Positions 11,816 to 26,009 of a stretch of DNA of 44,137 nucleotides are shown here, in pieces (the stretch's first letter is position 1; each line of letters starts with the position of its first letter). Made by a program: the position numbers and the translations under genes. The stretch lies in contig JBDOLX010000018.1 of assembly GCA_039832905.1 (NCBI GenBank), positions 1-44,137 on the forward strand, given 5' to 3'. Below the pieces are notes generated by a model that saw only the letters and a program-made list of their open reading frames with translations, had not been told where the DNA came from and did not search any database. The stretch comes from Desulfurobacteriaceae bacterium (GTDB lineage Bacteria > Aquificota > Aquificia > Desulfurobacteriales > Desulfurobacteriaceae).

Positions 11816-12712
11816 TTAGGAAGGCCAAGGGTAGACATAAACTCCATAGTGAAGAATGTAGTACCTAAGTAAGAAACCTCCTACCAGAACAAGAATTGCA
11901 GCTATTGGAACGAAAGTTTTTATTTTCTTTGTCAAAGCTAAAATCTCTAAAACTAAAGGAACAATCAATCCCAAAATTAAAAATCCAAAGACAAATCCAG
12001 TGTCGCTAGTTAGATGCTCAAATACGTATTTTCCACCAGCATTTGCATAATAAAGATAGTTAAAGTAAGCTCCAAGCATTATTAGTTCTGCAATGATTAG
12101 AACTATATCAACCTTTTCATTCCACTTAGCCCACCAAGAACGCCTTTCATCTCCTTTAGAAAAGTATGTGTAAAGCATGTAGAAGGCTGTGGCTGTTGAA
12201 AGAGCAGAAGTTGCAAAAAGAACTGGAACAAGAGGATGGCTCCAGGCAGGAATGGCAGGGGCAACAGATAGTAAGAAACCTGTATAGGTAAAAGTTCCAA
12301 CTCCAGAAATTAGTGTTACCCAACCTAAAAAGTTTGTAAGTTTAGACTCTTTTTTCATTTTTAGTAGAAAGGACCACAGGATACCTGAAAGTGTAAAGAT
12401 AACAATTACGTTAGCTCCCCACATTATCCAAGGGTGGAAATTTCCTTCAAAGGCGGCAGCACCAAAAAGGGCTAGGAAAAACTTAAAAGGTTGTAGCATG
12501 TGAACTAAAAGGAAAAGCCCTCCAATGTTGACGAGCACTACCCCAAGAAAAGTTCCCCAAAAGTGCATGTTATTGTCTTTGTTCTTGAAAACAAGGTGGT
12601 TTAGGGCTGCTAAAAAGCCCATAGCTCCACCAAGACCACCTAGGAATAGGTATATTGCAATTCCTAAATGCCAACTATTTTGATGTTGAAAAGTAAGTTC
12701 TAAACCTCCCAT
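11816..12712 (-). CDS. psrC: NrfD/PsrC-type quinone-binding membrane subunit
   Basis: This 298-residue integral membrane protein has about eight hydrophobic helices in the NrfD/PsrC pattern: an opening segment with WHLGIAIYLFLGGLGGAMG, a second with VNIGGLFLLVHMLQP, and a pair ending FTYTGFLLSVAPAIPAWSHP. In this family the subunit anchors the catalytic AB pair to the membrane and passes electrons from menaquinol. It is the last of the three genes transcribed leftward from psrA, with 12 bases between it and psrB and a clear GGAGGGAAG ahead of the ATG. Substrate is set by subunit A, so the symbol marks family and operon position rather than a tested function. Confidence 0.88.
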   Translation of the reverse strand: MGGLELTFQHQNSWHLGIAIYLFLGGLGGAMGFLAALNHLVFKNKDNNMHFWGTFLGVVLVNIGGLFLLVHMLQPFKFFLALFGAAAFEGNFHPWIMWGANVIVIFTLSGILWSFLLKMKKESKLTNFLGWVTLISGVGTFTYTGFLLSVAPAIPAWSHPLVPVLFATSALSTATAFYMLYTYFSKGDERRSWWAKWNEKVDIVLIIAELIMLGAYFNYLYYANAGGKYVFEHLTSDTGFVFGFLILGLIVPLVLEILALTKKIKTFVPIAAILVLVGGFLLRYYILHYGVYVYPWPS

Positions 12713-12724
12713 TTCTTCCCTCCT

Positions 12725-13315
12725 TTACTTAACATAGTAAACCTTTGGTTTTGTTCCTAAATGCTCAGCTAAAGGTTTAGCTTTTCCACTTAAAACAAGT
12801 TCTGTTGCAGGATTATTCTTGTCGTTAAGATCTGTCCACATTCTGCAATTTGTAGGACAAGTAGAAACACAAGCAGGTTCCAATCCTTCAGAAATCCTAT
12901 GATGGCAGAAGGTGCATTTATCGATATGAGGAACTAAATGCATTGCAAACTCTTTTCCAAAGATCTCTTTACTCTTGTTCACATCTTCTCTTTCGTATCT
13001 ATAACGGGCATCGTAAGGACAGGCTATAACGCACGCTTCACAACCAAGACAGAGGCTTGGATTAACCAGTACTACACCATCTTCTGTTTTGTAAGTGGCT
13101 CCAGAAGGACAGGCGTAATAACAAGGAGTATTTTGGCAGTGCATACAGAGACGCGGAAAGAAAAGCCTACTACTTTCTCCTACTACTGCCTGCTCTACTT
13201 TTGTTCTCCACTTTTCGTTCCAGTAAGGAGTCTGATTTTCTTGTGCACAGGCAGCCATACAAGCATTACAGCCTATACAGTTTTTTAAATCAATAACAAA
13301 CGCCCAATTTTTCAT
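12725..13315 (-). CDS. psrB: Four-cluster ferredoxin subunit (PsrB/DmsB type)
   Basis: This 196-residue protein has four cysteine groups in the arrangement of the electron-transfer subunit of complex iron-sulfur molybdoenzymes: CIGCNACMAAC near residue 13, CMHCQNTPCYYAC near 58, CLGCEACVIAC near 88, and CTFCHHR with a later CVSTCPTNC near 135-155. It would carry four 4Fe-4S clusters and relay electrons between the membrane subunit and the molybdenum subunit. It has no signal peptide of its own, so it is presumably exported with subunit A through the Tat route, as in related enzymes. GGAGGAAAAAG precedes the ATG, and it lies 17 bases after psrA. Confidence 0.92.
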   Translation of the reverse strand: MKNWAFVIDLKNCIGCNACMAACAQENQTPYWNEKWRTKVEQAVVGESSRLFFPRLCMHCQNTPCYYACPSGATYKTEDGVVLVNPSLCLGCEACVIACPYDARYRYEREDVNKSKEIFGKEFAMHLVPHIDKCTFCHHRISEGLEPACVSTCPTNCRMWTDLNDKNNPATELVLSGKAKPLAEHLGTKPKVYYVK

Positions 13316-13332
13316 CTTTTTCCTCCCTTAAC

Positions 13333-16300
13333 TTAGCTGTTAATTTTCCTAACTTTTACTGTCATTTCATCCCTGGTATAACCGGAAATAATCGGTTCTA
13401 CCTTGTAGTTAAGCACATCAACGTGTCTTGCAGCTTCAGGAGGTTTTACTGCGAATCTAACAGGAGCTTCTGTACCGCCATTGAAAGGAATGAAGATTGT
13501 GTCTTCTCTAACCCACTTGGTAATAAAGGCTCTTGCCTTCATTTTTTTAGTAGGGTCTTCTGCGTTAATTACCTCTATTAGGTCGTTATCCCTTATACCT
13601 AGCCTTTCAGCAGCTTTCGGATGGATCCAAACTCTATAGTAGATCCTGTCAAGTTTTTTCCACTTGCTTACTCCAACAAGGAGAGGGTTATCTATAGTAT
13701 GGATACCGGTGTGGGAGAAGATTGGAGACTTTCCATGGGATACAAAGAACTCATCTTTTTCTAAGCTATCTTTTCTTCTTAGAGGAACCCATTCACAGAC
13801 AGGATCCCAGTTAGGCAGGTATCCAAAGAATCCTTGAACCATTTCAAATATTGTTGAAAAGAGTTCTATCCTTCCTGATGGAAGAGTGGTTGGAAGTTTT
13901 TCTGGAATCTTCCACTTTTCAAGAAGCTCGTCCATTTTTTCAATGTTGTAAAAGCCTTTTGTAAGAAGCTCTCTTTCTAACTTCTCTTTAGAAATACCTA
14001 TCTCCTTAGACAGTTCTTCAAGTTGGTATCTGTACATACCCTTTGTAAACGGTTCTCTTTTACTCATAGCCTCAAACACGTATTTCTTGAGCTTTTCAGA
14101 GTCCCAACCGTTGAGCCTTGAAATAAAGTCGATATAAACTTCAGCTCCCTTTTGCACTGCTTCTTGCTGATTCTTAACCTTGCCCATTCTTAGAAGCTGG
14201 GAACCAATCATTCCTGCAGCCATCTCAAAGTAGAAGTCAACAGCGTGTTTAGAAGTTCCCATAGGTTTATCAACAGCAGGAACTCTCTTGAAAACTGTTA
14301 AATCGTAAGAGGTTCCTCTTGGAAGGATTAGATCGTCTCTTTCTAAATAGGTTTGGTCTGGCAAGATAACATCGGCATAGGCGTTAGAATCTGTTGGCAT
14401 TGTGTCAAGAAATACAACAAGATCTGCCTCTTTCATCCACTTTTTCCACTTATCACCGTAAGGACTTCCAAGAACAGGGTTAACTGCGTATCCAAAAATT
14501 ACTTTGGGTTTATACTCTTTTCCGTTCCACTTAAGCTTTCCTTCAAAAGCGTCTTCAAATCCGTAATCAGAGAATACAGGGAAAGCAACTCCTGGTTCTT
14601 GGCTTTTTCTTGTAAAGTAATCTACCCACTGCTTAAAACTCTTTAGAACAGATACGTTAGGATATCCACTTCGCGTACCACTTTTCACTAAGTCTGTATA
14701 GTCCAAAGTGGATAGGAACTTTCCTACCGCTTTTGGGTTCTGGGCATTAGGAAGAACTATTCCAAAGAAGTAGTCAAGCATCCAGAATACACCCGGCATT
14801 CGAAATGCTGGATACTTTGACTCGTGTATAGGATATCCAAGAGGAAACTTTACATACTTTCCACCTATCTTCTTAAAACCTTCTTTGTTTAACCAGTTCC
14901 AGAATTTAGCTACCTTATGTCTAAATTCTCCACCTACAATGTAACCACCAGGGTTATCGTGACCGTTTATTATTACCTGCATAAGAGTAAGAGCTTTTCT
15001 CAACTGTATAGTATTGGCATATCTTGCATCGTATATACCAGGTTCCACAACGGAAGGACGGTTGGTTGCAAATTCAATAGCCACTTCACGAATATCTTTA
15101 GCAGGTATTGTTGTTATCTTTTCTGCCCACTCAGGAGTGTAAGATTTTGTTTTCTCTTTGAGAAGTTCCCAAACGGTCTTAACGTCTCTAATATAAGGAT
15201 TTTTCTTCTTAAGCATAGATAGAATTGCTTTTCTTTTTCCTTCATCAAGTTCTAGAGCAGGATCAATGTCTTTTCCTCTTATGTCTTTTTTATTGTGATT
15301 TGAGTATCCTTGTAGCACAGCCAAGGTGTTTCCTTTGTTATCCCAAACGTAGAAGTTCTTCCACCATATCATTCCATCCTTATCAGAAAGCAACCACCAA
15401 GTAGATTGCTTGGTTACTGGGTGGGGCATCTTTATAACAATGTGTGGAGCGTTTGTGTGGAACTTAAGAAAATCCTCATTGTAAGCATAGAGGTTTTTAC
15501 CATGGTGTTTTTCATGAAGTATGACGTGAAGCATTGCAAGGACTAAGGCTAGGTCAGTACCGGGCTTAATCTTTAAAAATTTGTTCGCTTTTGCAGCTAT
15601 TTCGGACTGTCTTACATCAACTGCAACAACTTTTGCTCCTTTTTTGAGGGCTTTTCCAAACCTATGGGCTCTACCTGTGGAAATTCCGACTAAAGAACCG
15701 TTTGAACGGATTACAAATATGAATCTTGCATTTTCATAATCGGCAACCATTTCTTCGTGGGTATTAAAGTATCCAAGGGTGGCATGTATTCCTAAGTGTT
15801 CCATTCCAACACAGTTCTGAATAGGAGCTCCCCAAACGTTTATTATGTCCATAAGAAGAGAAATAGAAAAAGTCCAAGGTCTATATTGGGCACATCCATG
15901 CCATCCACCAAGGAAGATCCACTCGTGAGGCTGTATGTTCTTTTCCATTACCTTCTTCATTATGTATTGGAAAGCTTCTTCCCAAGTAGCTTCTCTAAAC
16001 TTCCACTCTCCACGTTTTGATCCTTCAACCCTTATTAGTGGCTTGGTTATCCTGTCAGGATTAAAGAGATAGGAAAGTCCTGACTGCCCTCTTGCACAGA
16101 TTTTCCCTTGAGCGTAGTTGTCGTACTTGTTTCCTTCAATCTTTAAAGGCTTTTTGGTATTTCCTTTCTTGTGAACCCTTACGTTAAGACCACATACGTT
16201 GGCACAAAAACCACAAACGTTGGGTTTGTACTCTACATCACCTTTGGGAGAAAGTTCCTCAGCCCTTGCTTTTTCTGAAACCTTTAGAAACGGAAGGGTT

Positions 16301-16368
16301 GTTGCTCCGGTCGTTACAGCTATGGAGCCTTTGATAAAGCTTCTTCGGGATAACCCCTTTTTTCCCAT
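13333..16368 (-). CDS. psrA: Tat-exported molybdopterin oxidoreductase, polysulfide/sulfur reductase type catalytic subunit
   Basis: This is a 1011-residue molybdo-bis-MGD enzyme. The N-terminus has a twin-arginine signal (SRRSFIKGS, Arg8-Arg9) and hydrophobic stretch. Next comes the 4Fe-4S motif CGFCANVC (Cys52, Cys55, Cys59) with the fourth cysteine at 91 (CARGQ). Cys186 (QNCVGMEH) is positioned as the likely molybdenum or tungsten ligand, and the C-terminal cofactor-binding domain runs from about residue 870. With PsrB and PsrC it forms a membrane-bound respiratory reductase facing outside the membrane. At about 1000 residues it is longer than Wolinella PsrA or Salmonella PhsA and closer to the sulfur reductase SreA and tetrathionate reductase TtrA groups. 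Given the inferred lifestyle, sulfur or polysulfide is the likeliest acceptor, but tetrathionate or thiosulfate cannot be excluded. AGGAGGA precedes the ATG. Confidence 0.85.
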   Translation of the reverse strand: MGKKGLSRRSFIKGSIAVTTGATTLPFLKVSEKARAEELSPKGDVEYKPNVCGFCANVCGLNVRVHKKGNTKKPLKIEGNKYDNYAQGKICARGQSGLSYLFNPDRITKPLIRVEGSKRGEWKFREATWEEAFQYIMKKVMEKNIQPHEWIFLGGWHGCAQYRPWTFSISLLMDIINVWGAPIQNCVGMEHLGIHATLGYFNTHEEMVADYENARFIFVIRSNGSLVGISTGRAHRFGKALKKGAKVVAVDVRQSEIAAKANKFLKIKPGTDLALVLAMLHVILHEKHHGKNLYAYNEDFLKFHTNAPHIVIKMPHPVTKQSTWWLLSDKDGMIWWKNFYVWDNKGNTLAVLQGYSNHNKKDIRGKDIDPALELDEGKRKAILSMLKKKNPYIRDVKTVWELLKEKTKSYTPEWAEKITTIPAKDIREVAIEFATNRPSVVEPGIYDARYANTIQLRKALTLMQVIINGHDNPGGYIVGGEFRHKVAKFWNWLNKEGFKKIGGKYVKFPLGYPIHESKYPAFRMPGVFWMLDYFFGIVLPNAQNPKAVGKFLSTLDYTDLVKSGTRSGYPNVSVLKSFKQWVDYFTRKSQEPGVAFPVFSDYGFEDAFEGKLKWNGKEYKPKVIFGYAVNPVLGSPYGDKWKKWMKEADLVVFLDTMPTDSNAYADVILPDQTYLERDDLILPRGTSYDLTVFKRVPAVDKPMGTSKHAVDFYFEMAAGMIGSQLLRMGKVKNQQEAVQKGAEVYIDFISRLNGWDSEKLKKYVFEAMSKREPFTKGMYRYQLEELSKEIGISKEKLERELLTKGFYNIEKMDELLEKWKIPEKLPTTLPSGRIELFSTIFEMVQGFFGYLPNWDPVCEWVPLRRKDSLEKDEFFVSHGKSPIFSHTGIHTIDNPLLVGVSKWKKLDRIYYRVWIHPKAAERLGIRDNDLIEVINAEDPTKKMKARAFITKWVREDTIFIPFNGGTEAPVRFAVKPPEAARHVDVLNYKVEPIISGYTRDEMTVKVRKINS

Positions 16369-16460
16369 GGAATCCTCCTAAAGATGTTTAGTTTTATTTA
16401 ATCTTATTGTTTCTATTGTATAGCATTCAACAATTAAAAACAACCATAACTTACCACGAT

Positions 16461-16488
16461 TTTATAGAAAAAATATGGTGAAATTCAA
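16461..16488 (-). promoter_or_regulatory. Candidate sigma-70 promoter of the psrABC operon
   Basis: On the minus strand, TTGAAT (16488-16483), a 16-base spacer and TATAAA (16466-16461) lie about 93 bases upstream of psrA, in the 223-base gap after ntrY. The leader it would give is long enough for control sites. No sigma-54 (GG-N10-GC) element was recognised. Confidence 0.4.
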
Positions 16489-16591
16489 AAATAGAAACAA
16501 GCGAATAAAGAAATGAATTTCTATACTACTTGCAGACTGTTTCTACAATGAGACAAGAAGGTTAGAAGGGAAAGGAGTAATAAACGGAGGA

Positions 16592-18562
16592 TTAAATTGG
16601 TAACTCTATGACGAAAGTGTTCCTATTAACGGTATATATTTTTCCTCCGTGATCTTCTATTATCTTTTTAACTATAGATAGCCCCAATCCCCATCCTTCT
16701 TCTTTGGTTGAAATATAAGGAGAAAATAGCTTATCCATTATTTCCTCAGGTATACCAGGACCGTTATCCCTGAAAACAATAAAAACCTTCCCATCTTTTG
16801 TAGTTGTAGATACTGAAACCTCTGTAGATCCAGCCTCTATACTGTTATCTATAAGGTTAGTAAATACCTCTCTCATTAAACTTCTATCTACCGGTATTTG
16901 AGGAAGATTTTCAAGCTCAAATATTATTTTTACTTTATTCTCGTAAGGTTCCAAAGTACTTCTTAGAAGTTCATTAACGTCTGTAAGTTTCTTTTCAGGA
17001 AGGGGAAGTCTTGCAAAACGTCTAAATTCGTCTATAAGTCGTCTAATCACTTCAACTTCTGCTAAAATAGAATCCACTGCTTTATCTATAACTTTTTCCA
17101 TTTGAGGGTTTTTCTTTTTGTGCTGTCTCCTTATTCTTTCAGCGTTAAGAGTAATTGGAGTTAAGGGATTTTTTATTTCGTGAGCAATCCTTTGAGCAAC
17201 CTCTTTCCAAGCTTCTGCTTTTTGAGCTTTAACAAGATTGGTTAAGTCTTCAACTATCAGTACCCTATCTCCTATTTCAGGAGATACAATAAGCTCAACG
17301 GATAAGAATTTTTCTCTTCCATTTATTTCCTCTCTAACCTCTGTTCTTCTAACTCCTTTTTCTAAAAGCTTTTCAACTGCTTTTTTAAGCTCTGGATAGT
17401 CCTCCAAAAGATCCCAGAGATAATCTCCTTTTCTTTTAGAAACTCCAAGTAGTTCCTTTGCTGATAAGTTACAGGAGATAATTTTCCCCTCATTGTTAAA
17501 AGTGATAATGGCGGGTGAAATACTGTTTATTACCTTTTCTATGTACTTACGACTGTCTTCCAACCTTTGCTTTAAGGCTCTTAACTGCTCTACCATGTAG
17601 TTAAAGGCAGTTATAACGTGTTTTAGCTCGTCAGTCCCTTCCTCTTCTACTCTAACGTTTAAATCGCCTTTCGACATTTTTTTCGTAGCCCTATAAAGGG
17701 CTTCTATTGGAACAGAAATTCTTCTTTCAAAATACCTTGCAAACCATAAGGCCCCAAAGAGAACAGCAACCCCCATAAGAGCAAAAGCCAAGGTATAAAC
17801 TGTTTTTATTGGTCTCTCATATGTGACAAGTGTCTCGTAGTTAGAACGTAAGGTTCTTATTTTTTCTATGTCTTTTACTAAGCTTTCAGGAAACTTTTTT
17901 GAAACGCAAACAAGAAAAAAAGGCTTTTTACGGCAAGCGATGAAAAGTTTCTCTTTAGAATCTAAGTAATGGTAGTTATCAACTTTTGAAACAGCAATTA
18001 TTTCTTTATCAGAAAGGGGAATAGTACCTACTCTGCTAATAATTTTCTTTTTCTTAAGATCCACTTTTAAGTATCCGTCTATTCCATATATTTTTAGGGT
18101 GTATGGATAAACTTTCCTGTAGGTAAGCTGGGAGATTTTCCTTCCTAAGTCCTTAGATATAAAATTTAAAAACTCCTCCGAGGTTTCATAGGATAAATTA
18201 ACAATTCTTTTTACTTGAATCCTTAAGAGTCTATCAAGTCCTTTATTTACAACTCCGCTTGAGAGAAATATTGTAAACAGAGCAGGTCCCAAAATGAGAA
18301 GAACAAAAACCGAAAAAATCTTAAATCTCAAGTTTGTTCTAAACTTAGGGTAAAAGAAAAGAACTAAGTTTTTTATGAAAATTGCAAAAAGGACGGTAAC
18401 CAATATTATGATGATAACAAAAAGCAAGTGAAAGATAGGGTTATTAAGATAAAATTCTCCAAAAGAGGAGGAAATAAACTCCACACCAAAAACGCTAAGG
18501 AAAAAGATACCCAACAAGCTAAGGAGAATCTGTGGAAACTTCCTACTTTTTACTTTAAACAT
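16592..18562 (-). CDS. ntrY: NtrY-type membrane sensor histidine kinase
   Basis: This 656-residue kinase has three N-terminal membrane helices (about residues 12-32, 45-70 and 80-101), a periplasmic region of about 150 residues, and a fourth helix (255-277). A HAMP domain follows (about 278-330), then a PAS domain (340-440), a dimerisation domain with the phosphorylated His461 in AHEIKNPLTPITLNAERIRR, and the ATPase domain with NLIDNSIEAG, DNGPGIP and WGLGLSIVKKI. The helix layout and H-box are typical of NtrY, which in other bacteria acts on NtrX to tune nitrogen or redox metabolism. No response regulator is adjacent, so its partner is encoded elsewhere. It is the last gene of the metG operon (8-base overlap with nnr) and lies just upstream of psrABC in the same direction, so a link to respiration is possible but unproven. 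Confidence 0.88.
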   Translation of the reverse strand: MFKVKSRKFPQILLSLLGIFFLSVFGVEFISSSFGEFYLNNPIFHLLFVIIIILVTVLFAIFIKNLVLFFYPKFRTNLRFKIFSVFVLLILGPALFTIFLSSGVVNKGLDRLLRIQVKRIVNLSYETSEEFLNFISKDLGRKISQLTYRKVYPYTLKIYGIDGYLKVDLKKKKIISRVGTIPLSDKEIIAVSKVDNYHYLDSKEKLFIACRKKPFFLVCVSKKFPESLVKDIEKIRTLRSNYETLVTYERPIKTVYTLAFALMGVAVLFGALWFARYFERRISVPIEALYRATKKMSKGDLNVRVEEEGTDELKHVITAFNYMVEQLRALKQRLEDSRKYIEKVINSISPAIITFNNEGKIISCNLSAKELLGVSKRKGDYLWDLLEDYPELKKAVEKLLEKGVRRTEVREEINGREKFLSVELIVSPEIGDRVLIVEDLTNLVKAQKAEAWKEVAQRIAHEIKNPLTPITLNAERIRRQHKKKNPQMEKVIDKAVDSILAEVEVIRRLIDEFRRFARLPLPEKKLTDVNELLRSTLEPYENKVKIIFELENLPQIPVDRSLMREVFTNLIDNSIEAGSTEVSVSTTTKDGKVFIVFRDNGPGIPEEIMDKLFSPYISTKEEGWGLGLSIVKKIIEDHGGKIYTVNRNTFVIELPI

Positions 18563-23028: not shown

Positions 23029-23062
23029 GATTCTCCTCCCAGATGAATTTTGGGTTTGAATT

Positions 23063-23068
23063 ATTATA
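23063..23068 (-). promoter_or_regulatory. Candidate -10 element for the metG operon
   Basis: A perfect TATAAT on the minus strand lies 35 bases before the metG TTG start. No good -35 hexamer is found at 16-18 bases; CACTTG at 15 is the best. Tentative. Confidence 0.3.
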
Positions 23069-23141
23069 AGAAAAAGATTAAGGCAAGTGCCCAATAGTTA
23101 GAAGTTTACAACTGCAAGCTAAATACAGAAACAAATAAAAC

Positions 23142-23179
23142 AAGAAATAAATAATAGACTTTAGTTTGCGTTATTTCTT
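23142..23179. repeat. 9-bp inverted repeat in the metG/chemoreceptor divergent region
   Basis: AAGAAATAA (23142-23150) and TTATTTCTT (23171-23179) flank 20 bases, just upstream of the chemoreceptor promoter candidate. It could be an operator, but the arms are AT-rich and chance is possible. Confidence 0.35.
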
Positions 23180-23200
23180 AGTCTTTAGTTAGTTTAGGTA

Positions 23201-23209
23201 TGCTATACT
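23201..23209 (+). promoter_or_regulatory. Candidate extended -10 promoter of the chemoreceptor gene
   Basis: TGCTATACT (TG, one base, TATACT) lies 38 bases before the chosen start at 23248. It overlaps the first in-frame ATG (23200), which argues that this ATG is not the translation start. The -35 region is weak, and no sigma-28 pattern was seen. Confidence 0.4.
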
Positions 23210-23247
23210 TAAAATTGATTTCAGAACATTACCGAGGGAGAGAAGGG

Positions 23248-24807
23248 ATGGGAGTACTTAAGAAAGTCAAACTTAACAAAGTTTCTACCCAAATCCTTGT
23301 AGTAGCGTTTATTATTTTGGCTTGTTACGTGGTTTTATGGAAAGTAGCGTTTAGCGTTTACGAAAAAAACTTCAAACCTACCAAAAAGATGACTTGCTAT
23401 TTGCCTCTTGCGGAAAAGACCGCAGTATTTGTTCACAACTTGGCTGTAGAAAGAGGACTCTCCTCTGTTTTCATAGCTGGAGGAGCTGACAAGACTTCTT
23501 CTGCTTACAGAAAACTCTTGGCTCAGAGGGAGAAAGTAGACGGAATATTCCGGGAACTTGAAACCGAAGTTAGATCATTAGAGAAGAGAGAGGGAAAAAA
23601 AGTAGATATATCTTCTTTAAAAGGTAGGCTTTTAAATCTTAGGGAAAGAATTGATAATGCTGGGAATGTAGAAACAACGCCAATAGAAGTTTTGAGAAAT
23701 TATACCGCCATTGTGGAAGAAGCAATAGCTAAGTTCATAGAAAAATTTGCTCTCAAGTCTTTATCTGGCACTGCTTTAAAAGAACAAATGATAGCTCTTG
23801 TAACATTTCTAAGATATAAGGACAAGTTTGGAATAGAAAGAGCTTTAGCCTCAAGCATCACTGCAAAGATAAATACTGGACAGGAAATTCCGTTAAATCT
23901 TTTAATGTGGTTTAACGCTATCAACGGAGAAGAGTTGATCTTAGAAAAGGTGTTTAGGAATACGATATACGAAGATATGAAGGAAGTTTTTGATTCAACT
24001 AAAACTACTGAAGAATATAAGAAGGTGAAGAAAATCAAAGATCTCATTAGAGATGAAAAGTTCCAGGAGCTAGGGAATTACAAGTCCTTGGAAGTTTTTG
24101 GAATCTATACCAATTTTCTAAAGGTTCTCAAGAAGTTCCAAGATAGATACATAGAAGCTTTCTCTCAAAAGAACAAAGAAATCTACATAAGAGCAAAGTT
24201 AGAAATGTTTATCCTTGTTCTAATAATGTTCCTATTGACTTTTGTTCTCCTATTTATCTATTTCCTAAGGAAAAAGATTTCTCGCTCCACTGAAGAAATA
24301 AAGGAAGTTCTGATGGAAATAGAGAACGGAAAACTCAATTTCTACTGTCAAGTTGAGGAAGACGATGAATTTGGAGATATGAAACGTTCTGTTGCAAAGC
24401 TTGTGGAGATGTTTAGGAACATAATTGGTGAGATAGAGAGAGTTTCAGAGAATCTTTCTAAGGGAAAAATTTCTACTACCAAAGTAAATAGGGAAATTTT
24501 CAAGGGAGATTTAGAAGCTGTCAGAAAACACTTAGAAAAAATAGTAGATACTCTCCGAAAGTTCACTGTACAGGTAGAAAAGGTAACAAATAGTCTATCT
24601 CAAGGAAGGTTGGATGTTAAAGTAGATGAAGAAAAATTTGAGGGAGACTATAAGAAGATAGCGAAAGAACTTAACAACATTGTTGAAAACTTTAGAAAGG
24701 TTGTAGAGGTAATAAATGAGATAACAAAGAACTTGTCTGAAGGAGTTTTTAAAACTTACGATAGAAGCTTTTACCCGGAGACTTGCGGGAGATTATTATC
24801 AACGTGA
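23248..24807 (+). CDS. Chemoreceptor, 5' part: NIT-type sensor and first HAMP repeats (frameshifted)
   Basis: This 519-residue frame encodes the sensing half of a methyl-accepting chemotaxis protein. It has a first membrane helix (about residues 15-35), an extracytoplasmic helical sensor with [17 protein letters not shown] and [12 protein letters not shown], typical of the NIT (nitrate/nitrite-sensing) domain, and a second membrane helix (near base 24210-24270). Then follow HAMP-like units near 24280-24430, 24465-24560, 24605-24700 and the start of a fourth. At 24777 the natural continuation shifts to the -1 frame, so this frame ends in a non-homologous tail (ETCGRLLST) with TGA at 24805. I chose the ATG at 23248 ([12 protein letters not shown]), after GAGGGAGAGAAGGG, because an upstream ATG at 23200 lies in the probable -10 box. 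Without the 3' part it cannot signal to CheA. Confidence 0.8.
24772..24806 (+). other. Apparent -1 frameshift splitting the chemoreceptor; GTGA overlap
   Basis: Reading TTT TAC CCG from the 5' frame and then stepping back one base to GGA GAC TTG restores the repeat motif FYPGDLREI, matching sister repeats KFEGDYKKI and RFPGDLQKV. One extra C in the CCC run (24774-24776) would do the same. The 5' frame's TGA (24805-24807) overlaps an in-frame GTG of the 3' frame (24804), so coupled re-initiation is conceivable. Confidence 0.8.
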
Positions 24808-25988
24808 ACAATGCTACTTTAAAGATTAAGGAAACTATGTCAGCTCTTACAGAACTCTTAGAGAGAGCTAACATAGACGAAACCATAGACACTGGAAGAT
24901 TTCCTGGAGACTTACAAAAAGTAGGTATAGCAGCAAATACCTTTGCAACAACTATGAGGAGTATTATTAGGAGGGAGATTGACAGGTTTGTTAAAGAACT
25001 TGAAAGAGGAAATCTTAAAGCGGAACTTGACGAAGGAAAGTTTGTAGGTTCTCTAAATACCTTGAAAGAATCGTTAAAAGGAATTAAGAATATTTTGGTA
25101 ACGATAAGGGATTCCCTTCTTGAGGCTACAAAGAAGTTGGAGGAGGGAAATCTCATCGTAAAAATGAGGGAAGACAGGCTAAAGGGAGACTTGAAAGAGA
25201 TTGCGGTTTCTTTTAATAGGGGTGTTGAATCCCTGCGCAAGTCAGTTGGAATGTCTATAGAAACGCTAAAAGACGCTGTTGTTCATCTTGAGGAAAGGGT
25301 GAACAACCTCACAGATGTTGTAAAGAAAATACTATCCCAAACAGAGAAAACTATGGCTGTTTCTGAATCCGTTGAGCAGGTGGCAACGGGAATTGAAGGT
25401 CTGTCAAAGGAAATTTGGGAACTTAATTCGCTTTCTGATCAGAACCTTGAGGTGATTGCAAGGTCTCAGAAGTTAATACAGGAAATAAGAAAGCTGCTTG
25501 ATGACAGAACTAAGGAGCTTACCTCTATTGTAGAGTTTATTATGCAGATAGCTGATCAGACAAACTTGCTTGCTCTCAATGCAGCAATAGAAGCTGCAAG
25601 GGCAGGAGAAGCTGGAAGGGGATTTGCAGTAGTTGCTGATGAGGTTAGGAAGCTCGCGGAGAGGACGGCTAAAGCGACTGACCAGATAAAGACCACAATA
25701 GAAAACATTAATGAAGACATCAGAAGAAAAGTTATAGATAACGTTCTGCAAATTTTTGAAAACATCAGTGATTCTATGAAAAAACTTGAAGAGCTTGTAG
25801 CTAAGGTTACGGAGGAGGCTAAAGAAGAGTCGGGTTCTGTTAAAGAAGTTGCTGAGGTAGTAAGAGGAGTAGCAAGCATTGCTAACAACAACGTTGAGGA
25901 CCTGAAACAGGTTGCAGAAGGTATCAAAAGAGTTTCCGAGAAAATTAGAAGGCTTGAAGAAGAACTTGATAAGTTTAGAATAGAATAA
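24783..25988 (+). CDS. Chemoreceptor, 3' part: remaining HAMP repeats and MCP signalling domain
   Basis: This frame continues the receptor. It completes the fourth HAMP-like unit, then carries three more (around 24870-24960, 25000-25090 and 25140-25230), each with the signature of a small beta turn followed by FxGDLxxI or a variant. The coiled-coil signalling domain runs from about 25290 to the stop. Its hairpin tip is canonical: [20 protein letters not shown] and [18 protein letters not shown], which contacts CheA and CheW. No start with a proper Shine-Dalgarno is visible; candidates are the TTG at 24783 and the GTG at 24804 inside the overlap with the 5' frame. It was probably one 913-residue protein with the upstream frame. 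If made alone it would be a soluble, sensor-less signalling fragment. Confidence 0.8.
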
Positions 25989-26009
25989 CTAACAGTTAAG
26001 AGGTTAAAG

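What the first reader, a model, noticed from the sequence alone, without database searches (positions are those of the whole stretch)
23248..25988. NIT/poly-HAMP chemoreceptor with at least seven HAMP-like repeats
Between the second membrane helix and the signalling domain I count seven repeats about 45-47 residues apart, each with a short strand, an acidic/Lys turn and a FxGDLxxI-like helix start (near 24340, 24465, 24605, 24741, 24871, 25010 and 25146). Poly-HAMP arrays are known in a few receptors such as Aer2, but seven units behind a nitrate-type sensor in a likely nitrate- and sulfur-respiring thermophile would be a distinctive long relay.
Basis: partly seen in the sequence, partly recalled or inferred. 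Interest (0 to 1): 0.65.

Follow-up and report, generated by a model that had tools for sequence, protein, structure and literature searches.

The report
Chemoreceptor with seven HAMP relay units
This is a real chemotaxis receptor gene, broken by one reading-frame change in this copy, whose outside nitrate-type sensor is joined to the inside signalling tip by a fixed row of seven HAMP relay units; it is a longer example of a known receptor plan, not a new kind of system.

Summary
Seven HAMP-like repeats, 42-47 residues apart, lie between TM2 and the MCP signalling domain at 24274-25253. Six relatives carry intact orthologues (897-908 aa), each with exactly seven repeats. Six of the seven repeat profiles match canonical HAMPs above every control; repeat 4 matches only its sibling repeats. 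AlphaFold models of an orthologue place helix breaks at all seven connectors, and Foldseek returns the Aer2 poly-HAMP crystal structures first. Repeat 1 carries the canonical DExG motif; repeats 2-7 are of the divergent poly-HAMP type. The NIT domain is confirmed (Pfam 1.9e-19; structural match to NasR) and keeps its ERG and ERA arginine motifs. New here: repeats cluster by position, not by protein, and the same ordered array sits behind dCache sensors in a sister family, so it is an old interchangeable module. Two cautions. The window copy is split by a -1 frameshift near 24765 and has one extra codon, but shows no other decay. Nitrate as ligand is unproven: two receptor-bearing genomes lack a NapA-like reductase. 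Both congeners lack the gene and have its two neighbours adjacent. Verdict: a new member of a known kind (poly-HAMP MCP), of modest interest.

The parts
23248..25988 (+). Whole receptor gene, read in two frames (913 residues when the two frames are joined)
   Evidence: end-to-end alignment with six intact orthologues
23281..23349 (+). TM1 (approximate)
   Evidence: hydrophobic stretch read directly; aligned in orthologues
23431..24147 (+). NIT sensor domain, periplasmic
   Evidence: Pfam PF08376 1.9e-19, residues 62-300; NasR 4akk by profile and fold
24199..24273 (+). TM2 (approximate)
   Evidence: hydrophobic stretch read directly; position
24274..24435 (+). HAMP1, canonical, with DEFG motif
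   Evidence: (97%)
24412..24567 (+). HAMP2, divergent type
   Evidence: (93%)
24547..24714 (+). HAMP3, divergent type
   Evidence: (95%)
24685..24842 (+). HAMP4, divergent type; holds the frame change; matches HAMP only through sibling repeats
   Evidence: (3% direct; 93-95% to units 2 and 3)
24765..24807 (+). Overlap of the two frames; net -1 frameshift near its upstream end
24810..24971 (+). HAMP5, divergent type
   Evidence: (68%)
24966..25115 (+). HAMP6, divergent type; one extra Arg codon at the HAMP5/6 helix relative to all orthologues
   Evidence: (72%); alignment
25095..25253 (+). HAMP7, divergent type
   Evidence: (96%)
25254..25985 (+). MCP signalling hairpin with the conserved [18 protein letters not shown] tip
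   Evidence: Pfam PF00015 3.7e-35; tip position

Best explanation
A transmembrane methyl-accepting chemotaxis protein. A periplasmic NIT four-helix sensor, probably for nitrate or a related oxyanion (inferred), drives TM2 and a canonical HAMP1. The change then passes down six divergent HAMP units as alternating conformations of a dimeric parallel four-helix bundle, into the MCP hairpin that controls CheA (mechanism inferred from Aer2). The array is an old, position-fixed module whose sensor has been exchanged. The window copy carries one frame change, which is either a recent lesion or a single sequence error.
For: Pfam NIT, HAMP_2 and MCPsignal; six intact orthologues with exactly seven units; hhalign of units against canonical HAMPs 97/93/95/3/68/72/96%, controls at most 17%; seven helix breaks in two AlphaFold runs; Foldseek top hits are the Aer2 poly-HAMP structures, then Af1503 HAMPs; profile match to the HAMP-containing part of histidine kinase 9trk; DExG in unit 1 and single Gly in the rest, as published (PMC3570549); units cluster by position across NIT and dCache receptors; CheA/CheW-type genes in the genome; invariant columns kept equally before and after the break.
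Against: AlphaFold confidence is low (pLDDT 58-62) and only monomers were modelled. Unit 4 has no direct HAMP match. The frame is broken in this copy, and one codon is inserted in a helix where phase matters. No NapA co-occurrence.
Confidence: 0.8

Rival explanations
1. The gene in this genome is a pseudogene: a recently gained or relict receptor now broken and without function.
For: Frame change and one extra codon not seen in six orthologues; both congeners lack the gene and have its neighbours about 83 bases apart; other genes inspected in the contig are unbroken, so sequence quality is not generally poor.
Against: 172 of 185 invariant columns kept, as in intact orthologues, with no more loss after the break than before; a single missing base is also a common sequence error.
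Confidence: 0.45
2. The two frames are two products: a membrane NIT-HAMP1-4 fragment and a soluble HAMP5-7-MCP fragment started inside the gene.
For: An ATG at 24837 follows an AAGGA a few bases upstream (read directly), and the C-terminal frame is open to 25988.
Against: All six orthologues encode one polypeptide; such a start can arise by chance.
Confidence: 0.05
3. The repeats are a heptad-rich coiled coil with regular turns and not HAMP domains.
For: Pfam itself reports only one to three HAMP stretches per protein, and weak coiled-coil family hits are many.
Against: Coiled-coil controls from the same proteins score far below six of the units; Foldseek finds HAMP structures first; conserved connector glycines at fixed positions.
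Confidence: 0.04
4. Same receptor plan, but NIT senses something other than nitrate or nitrite (another anion or an indirect signal).
For: G008 and G013 hold the receptor without a NapA-like protein, and several genomes with one lack the receptor.
Against: Both arginine motifs of the NasR pocket are invariant; other nitrate reductases were not searched.
Confidence: 0.4

Closest known systems
Aer2 of Pseudomonas aeruginosa (poly-HAMP structures 3LNR, 4I3M, 4I44)
   Same: Chains of divergent HAMP units with a single conserved Gly, leading to an MCP domain; top structural hits of the array (PMC3570549)
   Different: Aer2 is soluble, with 3+2 HAMPs around a haem PAS; here one unbroken run of seven behind two TM helices and NIT, no PAS
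Group III hybrid histidine kinases (Nik1, AskA/AskB) and the HAMP-bearing kinase constructs 9TRK/9TRJ
   Same: Long poly-HAMP chains, frequently more than five units (PMC7643160); 9TRK is the best profile match of the array in the PDB (4.5e-14)
   Different: Histidine kinase output, no TM sensor in group III; here an MCP output and a periplasmic sensor
NasR of Klebsiella (NIT-ANTAR)
   Same: NIT domain with the ERG and ERA arginine motifs
   Different: NasR is a soluble RNA-binding antiterminator; here NIT is periplasmic and drives an MCP
dCache receptors with the same array in the sister family (L092, L093, L097, L098)
   Same: Units correspond one to one with HAMP2-7 here, and the C-terminal signalling arm has the same length
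   Different: dCache sensors in place of NIT; two of them (L093, L098) carry a cysteine-rich N-terminus

Membership tests
HAMP domain (PF00672 / PF18947) | Profile match of the repeat units | tested here: met
   Six of seven units above all controls; Pfam HAMP_2 over cut-off in the window and HAMP and/or HAMP_2 over cut-off in the orthologues
HAMP domain (PF00672 / PF18947) | Unit 4 matches canonical HAMP | tested here: inconclusive
   3% direct, but 89-95% to units 2, 3 and 5
HAMP domain (PF00672 / PF18947) | Two parallel helices joined by a connector, as a dimeric four-helix bundle | tested here: inconclusive
   Connectors and HAMP-like monomer fold modelled at low confidence; dimer not testable
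Poly-HAMP chain | DExG in the membrane-proximal unit, single Gly in the others | tested here: met
   DEFG in unit 1; G in units 2-7 of the window at the connector/AS2 junction; unit 6 has no Gly there in five of six orthologues
Methyl-accepting chemotaxis protein | MCPsignal domain with conserved tip | tested here: met
   3.7e-35; CheW-domain genes in the genome
Methyl-accepting chemotaxis protein | Methylation by CheR/CheB and control of CheA | not testable with these tools
   needs an experiment
NIT domain | Profile match and conserved pocket arginines | tested here: met
   1.9e-19; VERGLS and ERALASS invariant, aligned with NasR
NIT domain | Binds nitrate or nitrite | not testable with these tools
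   needs an experiment; NapA co-occurrence does not support it
Aer2 | PAS domain with haem between HAMP groups | tested here: not met
   No PAS match in the window protein or any orthologue; far below the NF041847 cut-off

The most novel reading that the evidence does not exclude
The seven units are not spare length. Each position has its own conserved identity, with a fixed short step between units 4 and 5, and the module is exchanged whole between sensors. It would set a much taller chemoreceptor array, kept apart from the cell's 1-2 HAMP receptors, and transmit by a strictly ordered alternation of HAMP states.
Probability: 0.3. Interest if true: 0.55.

Novelty: new member of a known kind. 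Interest (0 to 1): 0.33.

Why it matters
How a signal survives passage through many HAMP units in series is an open question usually studied with two or three units. This family offers a natural seven-unit transmembrane relay and matched receptors with the same array behind different sensors. That makes a direct test possible: remove units singly or in pairs from an intact orthologue and ask whether output inverts with parity. It also bears on how receptors of unequal height share or avoid one signalling array.

Tried and rejected
Programmed frameshift: rejected, since six orthologues are in one frame and I saw no slippery heptamer at the junction. General poor sequence quality: apparent truncations of gpsA, murG and dnaG proved to be start-codon choice, and those genes are intact. 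Link to nitrate respiration through NapA: no co-occurrence; other nitrate reductases were not searched. Plain coiled coil: rejected by controls and models. Aer2 membership: rejected for lack of PAS. The genome-contig scan gave only two full-length relatives, both already in hand. The literature survey of the longest HAMP arrays (Dunin-Horkawicz and Lupas 2010) is not held here, so no claim of a record is made.

Full report
What is there. The window encodes, on the + strand at 23248-25988, a receptor in two overlapping frames: 23248-24807 and about 24765-25988. The two frames together align end to end with six unbroken orthologues of 897-908 residues from relatives. The frame change sits in the fourth repeat: the conserved LLPGDL of the orthologues is read only in the second frame.

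Domains. Pfam gives NIT at 1.9e-19, HAMP_2 at 2.1e-7 and MCPsignal at 3.7e-35 for the two halves, and the same set in the orthologues. Hydrophobic stretches on either side of NIT are the two membrane helices (read directly). NIT matches the nitrate regulator NasR by profile (3.7e-7) and the orthologue model matches it by fold (E 2.7e-4). VERGLS and ERALASS are invariant or nearly so; the second aligns with E-R-A of NasR, which by my count is E175/R176, residues predicted to lie in its nitrate pocket (PMC7496416).

The repeats. Pivots are 45, 47, 46, 42, 47 and 46 residues apart in the window, and 46, 46, 46, 42, 46, 46 in the orthologue L002. The array's self-similarity peaks at 46. Profile-profile comparison with 28 canonical HAMPs from other proteins of the class gives 97, 93, 95, 3, 68, 72 and 96% for units 1-7; 62 control windows from the NIT and MCP helices of the same proteins reach at most 17%. 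Unit 4 is tied to the set through units 2, 3 and 5 (95, 93, 89%). Two AlphaFold runs on an orthologue break the helix at the same seven connectors, at low confidence. Foldseek of the array alone ranks the three Aer2 poly-HAMP structures first (E 0.025-0.11, probability 1.00), followed by many Af1503 HAMP structures. Unit 1 has DEFG and units 2-7 a single glycine in the window, as published for membrane-proximal and poly-HAMP units (PMC3570549).

History. A tree of all units groups them by position, not by protein, and includes dCache receptors of the sister family whose units correspond to HAMP2-7; it is a tree of short sequences and was not tested for support. So the array looks older than these genera and its sensor has been exchanged. 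In 136 genomes of the phylum, matches along most or all of the array occur only in the window's family and order. In both congeners the gene is absent, and metG and the ADP-ribosylglycohydrolase-like gene (named from its sequence, not tested) are about 83 bases apart. A small tree of those two genes does not resolve whether the window lineage gained the gene or the congeners lost it (support 0.48). In relatives the gene stands in other neighbourhoods. Its GC (0.369) equals that of the window (0.372).

State of this copy. One frame change and one extra codon at the unit 5/6 helix set it apart. It keeps 172 of 185 columns invariant in the orthologues, no worse after the break than before, and the other genes inspected in the contig are unbroken. 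A recent lesion and a single sequence error remain about equally likely.

How it works (inferred). By analogy with Aer2 (PMC3570549), ligand at NIT shifts TM2 and HAMP1, and successive HAMPs take opposite conformations down to the MCP hairpin. In F7 arrays the boundary of the last HAMP and the PAS beyond two HAMPs lie 17.5 and 24.5 nm above the baseplate (PMC7184735), so about 3 nm per unit; six further units would add roughly 18 nm (my estimate). Of the genome's other MCPs, three have one or two HAMPs and the other two gave no HAMP match, so the receptor could hardly share their array.

Nitrate. Two near-complete receptor-bearing genomes (G008, G013) lack a NapA-like protein at 1e-50, and several genomes with one lack the receptor. 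All but one of the matches are below the NapA curated cut-off. The ligand therefore remains open.

Noticed in passing
L101 1308-2072 (G000 contig C95): A 255-residue MCP signalling frame with no sensor or membrane part in the same genome; a small soluble receptor or a remnant.
   Followed up: no
L098 (start of protein) and L093 (start of protein): Two dCache poly-HAMP receptors of the sister family begin with a cysteine-rich stretch (C..CP...CP...YC.G.Y..C), possibly metal-binding.
   Followed up: no
L094 927-3269: A further receptor with about seven more weakly scoring HAMP-like units and no recognised sensor domain.
   Followed up: partly
window 24966-24971: An extra Arg codon (AGG AGG) in the continuous helix between HAMP5 and HAMP6, absent from all six orthologues; it would shift the helix phase.
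   Followed up: partly
window 23035-26009: Empty site: in both congeners (G001, G002) the flanking metG and ADP-ribosylglycohydrolase-like genes are about 83 bases apart, without the receptor.
   Followed up: yes
window 11816-18562: On the - strand, a 1011-residue protein with an RRxFxK-type (Tat-like) leader, a ferredoxin-like protein and a membrane protein, likely a molybdoenzyme complex, next to a HAMP-PAS histidine kinase (Pfam for the kinase only).
   Followed up: no
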